57,975 nucleotides of DNA from positions 1 to 57,975 of the forward strand of contig DXFK01000181.1 of NCBI GenBank assembly GCA_019114495.1, given 5' to 3'. The stretch is from Candidatus Blautia stercoravium (GTDB taxonomy: Bacteria > Bacillota > Clostridia > Lachnospirales > Lachnospiraceae). The position numbers and the translations under genes were made by a program. Of this stretch, positions 19,018 through 20,233 are shown piece after piece (the first letter of the stretch is position 1; the number at the start of each line of letters is the position of its first letter). The notes under the pieces are model-generated. The model had not been told where the DNA came from. It searched no databases and worked only from the letters and a program-made list of their open reading frames with translations.

Positions 19018-19425
19018 ATGTCAGTTAGAAAGACAACCACAAAGGCTGCAGCAGAGGCTGCCGCTGTAAAGACGACTCCAGCGAAGACAGAAGAAACAAA
19101 AACTGAAACAGCTGCAAAGAAAGCGCCGGTAAAAAGAGGGGCTGCAAAGAAGGAAGCAGCTGCGAAAAAAGCAACTGCCACAAAGACAACAACTGCAAAG
19201 ACAACACCGGCTGCTGCAAAGGAAATCGTATTTTTACAGTTTGCAGGAAAAGAACTGGATATGGAAACCATCAAGGCAAATGTGAGAAAAGCATGGGCGG
19301 CAGAGACGGGAAAAAAAGAAAGTGACATCAAAGACATACAGATTTATGTAAAACCGGAAGAAAACGCTGCTTACTATGTGGTAAATGGTGAATTCGTAGA
19401 AGGTGGAAGAAAAATAGACTTATAA
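19018..19425 (+). CDS. DUF6465-like protein with Lys/Ala/Thr-rich histone H1-like N-terminal tail
   Basis: Low-complexity KTTxKAAA... tail followed by folded domain (EIVFLQFAGKELDMETIKANVRKAW...). Confidence 0.75.
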   Translation: MSVRKTTTKAAAEAAAVKTTPAKTEETKTETAAKKAPVKRGAAKKEAAAKKATATKTTTAKTTPAAAKEIVFLQFAGKELDMETIKANVRKAWAAETGKKESDIKDIQIYVKPEENAAYYVVNGEFVEGGRKIDL

Positions 19426-19992
19426 GACGGACTTTTTTGAAACATGGAGAGAACTTCTTTTATGATTTGTTGTAAAAGAGGTTCTTTTTTTCTGGACTTC
19501 CTGCTGTTCTTCTTTCAGAAGCTGCTTTTCGATGGAGAGTACGTCGGGGAAAATAAGAGAAGTGTTGCCCCGGCGAAGTTGTTCTATAACTTCACGGGCG
19601 TATTTCAGAAGCTGGCGCTGGGTTTTGCGGGAAAGCTGTACAGGGTTTTGGGAGGCGGAATCTATGTATTCCATGGTGATGTAGCGTCTGGTGACCGGAC
19701 ACATATTCTGAATCAGGAAGGCTTTTTCATGTCCCAGCACCTGGCCGAATACAATGGTATTGCACCGTTGGTAACGGGCTAGTTTGCTTTTGTATACTTT
19801 TCGGAATTTGGACACTTGGGAAGAAAAAGGAATGAACCAGTAGAGCTCCGGGTGCTGTCTATCCTGAAAAGCACAGTAGCAGGGGCGGTTGTGGCTCTTT
19901 TCTTTTGTGGATTCTTTGTTTCTCATTAGGTATCGGTCGTGAAAATTTTGAAAATACTCGTCTGAAATGAAATAGAAATGATGATTTTTCAT
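19420..19992 (-). CDS. cptN: Type III toxin-antitoxin system ToxN/AbiQ/CptN-like endoribonuclease toxin (190 aa)
   Basis: MKNHHFYFISDEYFQNFHDRYLM...RPCYCAFQDRQHPELYWFIPFSSQVSKFRKVYKSK...VFGQVLGHEKAFLIQNMCPVTRRYI...LIFPDVLSIEKQLL; SD AGGAG before ATG; immediately preceded by tandem repeats. Confidence 0.82.
   Translation of the reverse strand: MKNHHFYFISDEYFQNFHDRYLMRNKESTKEKSHNRPCYCAFQDRQHPELYWFIPFSSQVSKFRKVYKSKLARYQRCNTIVFGQVLGHEKAFLIQNMCPVTRRYITMEYIDSASQNPVQLSRKTQRQLLKYAREVIEQLRRGNTSLIFPDVLSIEKQLLKEEQQEVQKKRTSFTTNHKRSSLHVSKKSVL
19450..19491 (+). terminator. Rho-independent terminator of the DUF6465-like gene, lying inside the convergent toxin ORF
   Basis: AGAACTTCTTTTA/TAAAAGAGGTTCT stem (one G-T wobble) followed by T7. 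Confidence 0.8.
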
Positions 19993-20058
19993 AGATTCTC
20001 CTAAGATTTGATTGGGTTGATATGATTTTGGATATGCTTTAAGAAGGGGCTGTATTTG

Positions 20059-20104
20059 AGCCTGGTTATCTTTTGGTTGCATACCAGGAAGCAACGGACA
20101 TTTG
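20059..20104 (-). repeat. Type III antitoxin RNA repeat 2 (46 nt)
   Basis: Minus strand CAAATGTCCGTTGCTTCCTGGTATGCAACCAAAAGATAACCAGGCT; 39/46 identical to repeat 1; H-type pseudoknot possible. Confidence 0.85.
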
Positions 20105-20150
20105 AGCCCGGGTATCTTTTCGTTGCGTACCGGGAAGCAACAAACATTTG
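20105..20150 (-). repeat. Type III antitoxin RNA repeat 1 (46 nt)
   Basis: Minus strand CAAATGTTTGTTGCTTCCCGGTACGCAACGAAAAGATACCCGGGCT; H-type pseudoknot possible. Confidence 0.85.
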
Positions 20151-20178
20151 AAAGGGAAACGTATGTTTTGTATTTCCT

Positions 20179-20207
20179 ATCATACACCCCTGAAAAAGAA
20201 ATGTCCA
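20179..20207 (-). promoter_or_regulatory. Promoter of antitoxin-toxin operon TGGACA-17-TATGAT
   Basis: Minus-strand -35 at 20207-20202 and -10 at 20184-20179, exact 17-bp spacer. Confidence 0.75.
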
Positions 20208-20233
20208 GAGGAAAATGTTGGAAAATTGTACAA

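What the first reader, a model, noticed from the sequence alone, without database searches (positions are those of the whole stretch)
19420..20210. Complete type III (protein-RNA) toxin-antitoxin locus of the CptIN/ToxIN class
The sequence shows, in order on the minus strand: a TGGACA-17-TATGAT promoter (20207-20179), two 46-nt tandem repeats (20150-20059) plus a partial CAAAT start of a third, a Shine-Dalgarno, and a 190-aa ORF. The ORF resembles ToxN/AbiQ/CptN endoribonucleases (YWFIPFSSQVSKFRK..., VLGHEKAFLIQNMCP, LIFPDVLSIEKQLL). From established knowledge, type III antitoxins are RNAs made of tandem pseudoknot repeats upstream of the toxin gene, and several families give abortive phage infection. 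Assignment to the CptN branch is from memory of the family. The ORF track hides the repeats because it extends the toxin frame through them (20187).
Basis: partly seen in the sequence, partly recalled or inferred. Interest (0 to 1): 0.9.

Follow-up and report, generated by a model that had tools for sequence, protein, structure and literature searches.

The report
Terminator-less CptIN toxin-antitoxin locus in Blautia
A gut bacterium (Blautia) carries a known kind of self-poisoning switch, an RNA-cutting toxin held in check by a repeated knotted RNA, but three related species lack the stop signal between antidote and toxin that almost every other examined copy has, and keep a conserved unstructured stretch in its place.

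Summary
The CptN assignment is now tested rather than recalled: NCBIfam CptIN equivalog 204 bits against a cut-off of 90, closest PDB chain E. rectale CptN (3.4e-22), and an AlphaFold model (pLDDT 92.6) whose best fold match is that structure. The repeats form H-type pseudoknots supported by compensatory changes in both stems. The locus is a chromosomal insertion; other genus members have the empty site. Of 89 CptIN loci compared, only this locus and two sister-species copies combine intact repeats with no strong hairpin there. Their 66-nt spacer is C-rich, unstructured, and conserved (62/66) where fourfold sites are not (25/50). So: a CptIN system by toxin and repeats, with one locus-architecture criterion unmet. 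How the antitoxin:toxin ratio is kept is open; Rho-dependent attenuation or toxin self-cleavage at a fourth TCAAAT are candidates.

The parts
20179..20207 (-). sigma-70-type promoter TGGACA-17-TATGAT
   Evidence: same hexamers and spacing in L002 and L033
20105..20150 (-). CptI antitoxin repeat 1 (46 nt): S1 GUUGC 20141-20137 / GCAAC 20126-20122; S2 CCCGG 20134-20130 / CCGGG 20111-20107 (H-type pseudoknot)
20059..20104 (-). CptI antitoxin repeat 2 (46 nt): S1 GUUGC 20095-20091 / GCAAC 20080-20076; S2 CCUGG 20088-20084 / CCAGG 20065-20061; S2 differs from repeat 1 by a compensatory C-G to U-A change
19993..20058 (-). 66-nt spacer in the place of the intergenic terminator: begins with partial third repeat CAAAT, C-rich (16 C, 2 G in its first 53 nt), MFE -1.4 kcal/mol, no strong hairpin with U-tract; 62/66 identical in L033
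20006..20011 (-). fourth TCAAAT, just upstream of the SD; same hexamer as at each repeat boundary (first bases 20151, 20105, 20059), the inferred CptN processing site
   Evidence: cleavage position inferred by alignment with CptI of E. rectale (PMC4627078)
19998..20002 (-). Shine-Dalgarno AGGAG
19420..19992 (-). CptN-family toxin, 190 aa (core about residues 1-158, then a C-terminal extension)
19420..19518 (-). 3' part of the toxin ORF coding the C-terminal extension (residues 159-190); runs through the neighbour's terminator and overlaps the end of the convergent gene by 6 bases
19450..19491 (+). intrinsic terminator of the convergent gene (AGAACTTCTTTTA..TAAAAGAGGTTCT then TTTTTTC), lying inside the toxin ORF
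   Evidence: read from the sequence

Best explanation
It is a chromosomal type III toxin-antitoxin module of the CptIN family, in a variant architecture. One promoter transcribes two CptI repeats and the toxin. Each repeat folds into an H-type pseudoknot; CptN, an RNase of the ToxN/MazF-like fold, cuts the transcript at the repeat boundaries (inferred site UCA^AAU) and is held inactive by the excised repeats. Loss of the antitoxin frees the toxin to cut mRNA and arrest growth. Unlike the other repeat-bearing CptIN loci examined, the transcript has no strong intrinsic terminator before the toxin; a conserved unstructured C-rich spacer sits there instead, so the antitoxin:toxin ratio must be set in another way. 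Shown here: family membership of toxin and repeats, pseudoknot covariation, predicted fold, purifying selection on toxin and spacer, absence of a terminator hairpin. Inferred: RNase activity, processing, neutralisation, growth arrest, and that the spacer regulates toxin expression.
For: NCBIfam NF047359 204 bits, cut-off 90. PDB 4rmo CptN E = 3.4e-22. AlphaFold pLDDT 92.6, pTM 0.85; best Foldseek match 4rmo, TM 0.84 by target length, E 6.1e-12, with AbiQ 4glk in fourth place. R36, P37, W52, P55, P99 invariant and S57, K62 at least 90% conserved over 58 homologues. Pseudoknot: 99.6% of cells paired, 5 pairs and 26 cells with changes on both sides, 0 of 500 shuffles reach the cell count; slid controls 20-33% paired. 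Toxin dN/dS about 0.08 between window and L033. Terminator hairpin of at least 11.5 kcal/mol in 83 of 86 other loci; shuffled spacers reach 10 kcal/mol in 1%. Trio spacer 62/66 identical against 25/50 fourfold sites, Fisher p 5.6e-8. Trio monophyletic 100/100, nested among terminator-bearing loci.
Against: No toxicity, RNase or rescue data for this locus. Two of the adenine-contact residues reported for E. rectale CptN (D81, S85) are not conserved here, though its Y104 is (Y109). A weak 4-5 bp hairpin (GGCU..AGCC, -2.9 to -3.9 kcal/mol) followed by a pyrimidine tract remains and might act as a feeble terminator.
Confidence: 0.92

Rival explanations
1. Terminator replaced by Rho: the C-rich, G-poor, unstructured spacer is a rut-like site, and Rho ends most transcripts before or early in the toxin gene, keeping antitoxin in excess.
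For: C minus G is +14 with 2 G in 53 nt; only 0.1% of same-length windows in the 58 kb match both. Other loci, except the repeat-less L087, range from -11 to +3. 10-13 YC dimers, and the trio's spacer is more unpaired than in any other locus. A Rho gene is present, cut by a contig end.
Against: Only 66 nt, shorter than typical rut regions (own knowledge). Composition alone is weakly specific, and a hairpin-free leader is bound to be less balanced in G and C. One paper search found nothing on Rho in type III TA loci.
Confidence: 0.3
2. Feedback by self-cleavage: free CptN cuts its own mRNA at the fourth TCAAAT, just upstream of the SD, lowering toxin output when antitoxin is short.
For: TCAAAT at 20151, 20105, 20059 and 20011, i.e. 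at each repeat boundary and once before the SD; CAAAT at -18 in all three sister loci and not at that place in terminator-bearing members of the same repeat type. CptI of E. rectale is cut at the homologous boundary (PMC4627078).
Against: The cut site of this CptN is inferred, not measured; the whole spacer is conserved, so conservation of this hexamer is not separate evidence. TCAAAT is not avoided in coding sequence (5 seen, 5.6 expected).
Confidence: 0.25
3. Decaying locus: the terminator was lost and the system is dead or tolerated because the toxin is weak.
For: Promoter hexamers each carry one mismatch to consensus; the toxin has an unusual C-terminal extension into a neighbour's terminator.
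Against: Toxin dN/dS about 0.08 with dS about 1.5; repeats and spacer conserved over the same divergence; pseudoknot pairs kept by compensatory change.
Confidence: 0.05
4. The spacer is a decayed third repeat bounded by two processing sites.
For: CAAAT spacing 46, 46, 48 nt; visual similarity to repeat 2.
Against: Core alignment to the repeats no better than shuffles (p 0.07 to 0.52); no structure.
Confidence: 0.08

Closest known systems
CptIN of Eubacterium rectale (PDB 4RMO, PMC4627078)
   Same: toxin family and fold; two tandem repeats of about 45 nt; H-type pseudoknot with A-rich L2 loop; processing site at the repeat boundary (inferred here)
   Different: 29% identity in the structural alignment; different S1/S2 sequences; window has a C-terminal helical extension; window lacks the intergenic terminator
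CptIN loci with CAAAT-type repeats (L003-L007, L010, L037, L057, L058)
   Same: near-identical repeat frame CAAAUGUUUGUYGC; 44-55% toxin identity; promoter directly upstream
   Different: all have a strong terminator hairpin between repeats and toxin; S2 stem mostly CUCGA/UCGAG instead of CCYGG/CCRGG
ToxIN / AbiQ
   Same: locus logic and toxin fold
   Different: no PF13958 match in this genome; ToxI repeats 34-36 nt (PMC5086642); a hairpin upstream of the toxin in about 23 of 25 ToxN loci looked at here
MazF/Kid type II toxins
   Same: related fold
   Different: protein antitoxin; no RNA repeats

Membership tests
CptIN (type III TA) | toxin homologous to CptN (families are classified by toxin sequence, PMC5086642) | tested here: met
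   NF047359 204 bits, cut-off 90; 4rmo 3.4e-22
CptIN (type III TA) | CptN fold | tested here: met
   model pLDDT 92.6; Foldseek best hit 4rmo
CptIN (type III TA) | tandem repeats of about 40-50 nt directly upstream | tested here: met
   two 46-nt copies plus CAAAT
CptIN (type III TA) | repeats form H-type pseudoknots | tested here: met
   covariation in both stems
CptIN (type III TA) | single promoter upstream of the repeats | tested here: inconclusive
   consensus match conserved in three loci; transcription not measured
Type III TA locus as defined in surveys | Rho-independent terminator between antitoxin and toxin (PMC5086642, PMC8860590) | tested here: not met
   no hairpin beyond 3.9 kcal/mol; 83 of 86 other loci pass. 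Hence filed as a variant, not as a canonical locus
CptIN (type III TA) | conserved catalytic residues | tested here: met
   S57, S58, K62, R36, Y109 present; whether the triad Arg of PMC4627078 corresponds to R36 or to Q59 is not resolved here
CptIN (type III TA) | toxin is an endoRNase, toxic, neutralised by its repeats, which it processes | not testable with these tools
   needs bench work
CptIN (type III TA) | 2:2 heterotetramer | not testable with these tools
   needs purification
ToxIN | Pfam ToxN_toxin match | tested here: not met
   no match in own genome; none for the protein

The most novel reading that the evidence does not exclude
Probability: 0.4. Interest if true: 0.6.

Novelty: new variant of a known kind. 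Interest (0 to 1): 0.45.

Why it matters
The intergenic terminator is presented as a hallmark of type III loci that keeps antitoxin in excess (PMC5086642), and published searches required it, so loci without it would have been screened out. A conserved, terminator-free CptIN suggests that the hallmark is dispensable and gives a direct way to ask how the ratio is really kept. It also adds a naturally diverged set of CptI pseudoknots with compensatory changes; no Rfam 15 model matched these repeats.

Tried and rejected
Pfam, PADLOC and Rfam give no useful match to toxin or repeats. Spacer as decayed third repeat: not above shuffles. Spacer as N-terminal coding extension: in frame and open, but L033 has a stop in repeat 2 and no start after it, and three of the four changes against L033 alter the would-be codons. 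Spacer pairing with the repeats: a 7-nt complement noticed by eye, about five such expected by my rough estimate; not pursued. Avoidance of TCAAAT in coding sequence: none. Other copies of repeats or spacer in the own genome: none beyond chance; viral contigs: none for exact spacer or repeat patterns. Near copy on plasmids or phages: best plasmid hit 41.6%, no phage hit. SD occlusion as a substitute control: SD-AUG accessibility is ordinary. The original survey paper of the three families (doi 10.1093/nar/gks231) is not held, so its treatment of terminator-less loci is known only through the review.

Full report
Observation. The repeats are 46 nt, 20150-20105 and 20104-20059, followed by CAAAT; 66 nt separate the end of repeat 2 from the ATG at 19992. 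The promoter match by itself would be unremarkable, but it recurs in sister loci.

Identity. The protein matches the NCBIfam CptIN equivalog at 204 bits (cut-off 90) and the solved CptN of E. rectale. An AlphaFold model from 58 homologues (pLDDT 92.6) finds that same structure first and AbiQ fourth. Pfam and PADLOC have nothing; ToxN (PF13958) does not match this genome. Residues invariant in 58 homologues are present. The host is a Blautia: the closest locus outside the own genome is in B. hansenii MSK.15.26 (95% toxin identity), of the same genus.

Antitoxin. Twenty-three repeats from 12 loci of the same repeat type align without trouble. The H-type pseudoknot (S1 GUUGC/GCAAC, S2 CCYGG/CCRGG in the window) is paired in 99.6% of cells, with compensatory changes at two S1 and three S2 pairs; sliding the partners drops pairing to 20-33%. 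Repeats 1 and 2 of the window themselves differ by a compensatory S2 change. The layout matches CptI of E. rectale, whose repeat I read from primers in PMC4627078.

The missing terminator. In the comparison of upstream regions, a hairpin with U-tract lies upstream of the toxin in 83 of 86 loci outside the window's group. Of the three others, two (L040, L087) have no recognisable repeats and one (L059) has a strong hairpin that only fails the U-tail rule. L084 passes the scan but also has no recognisable repeats. Most of 14 viral-contig relatives also have a terminator, as do about 23 of 25 ToxN loci. The window, B. hansenii MSK.15.26 (L002; L032 is the same locus) and G392 (L033) have only a hairpin of -2.9 to -3.9 kcal/mol; the spacer folds no better than shuffles. 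With a tighter 66-nt scan more loci fall below 10 kcal/mol, mostly because the hairpin lies further upstream or the start was misplaced; the 110-nt scan is the fairer count. The three form one clade (100/100) inside terminator-bearing loci, so one loss is the simplest reading. Surveys treat the terminator as a criterion (PMC5086642; PMC8860590).

Spacer. Window and L033 share 62 of 66 spacer positions but only 25 of 50 fourfold sites in the toxin (Fisher p 5.6e-8), so the spacer is under constraint. It has 16 C and 2 G in 53 nt, is mostly unpaired, and holds a fourth TCAAAT just before the SD. These suit Rho-dependent attenuation or toxin self-cleavage; neither is shown.

Toxin. dN/dS about 0.08 against L033 argues for a working protein. 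The C-terminal extension (190 aa against mostly 155-165 in relatives) reads through the terminator of the convergent gene and is largely modelled as a helix. The names DUF6465 and SASP for the two neighbours are from memory of the families, not from a family search.

Setting. Between the same two neighbours other genus members have 138-362 bp, the window group 850-869 bp: an insertion in a convergent intergenic region, with no mobile-element sign seen in the stretch read. CptIN over cut-off occurs in 6 of 20 genus genomes, and in 56 of 397 family, 44 of 392 order and 12 of 391 class samples.

Limits. All functional steps are inferred. The three terminator-less loci are close relatives, so they count as one evolutionary event. 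The spacer constraint rests on three sequences. The E. rectale system stabilised a plasmid but made no difference to over 200 coliphages in E. coli, so a phage-defence role should not be assumed.

Noticed in passing
L087 (G568:C63:2701-3156), upstream of the toxin: CptN-family toxin (164 aa) with no recognisable antitoxin repeats and no terminator, preceded by a C-rich, G-poor leader (C minus G +14, 2 G in 53 nt), the same composition as the window's spacer; may be an orphan toxin or a second case.
   Followed up: partly
L084 and L040: CptN-family toxins without recognisable repeats upstream; the L040 toxin falls on L014 in the tree but its upstream region has lost the repeats.
   Followed up: partly
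window 19450-19491: The convergent neighbour's intrinsic terminator lies wholly inside the toxin coding sequence, so the two genes overlap at their ends.
   Followed up: partly
window 20151-20178 and leaders of L004, L005, L037: Short inverted repeat just before the first CptI repeat in several loci (AGATAGGAAACTATCT; AAACATACGTTT in the window), possibly a 5' protective hairpin.
   Followed up: no
L170-L183: CptN-family genes occur on contigs classed as viral, mostly with a terminator hairpin upstream, so the module may travel on phages or prophages elsewhere.
   Followed up: partly
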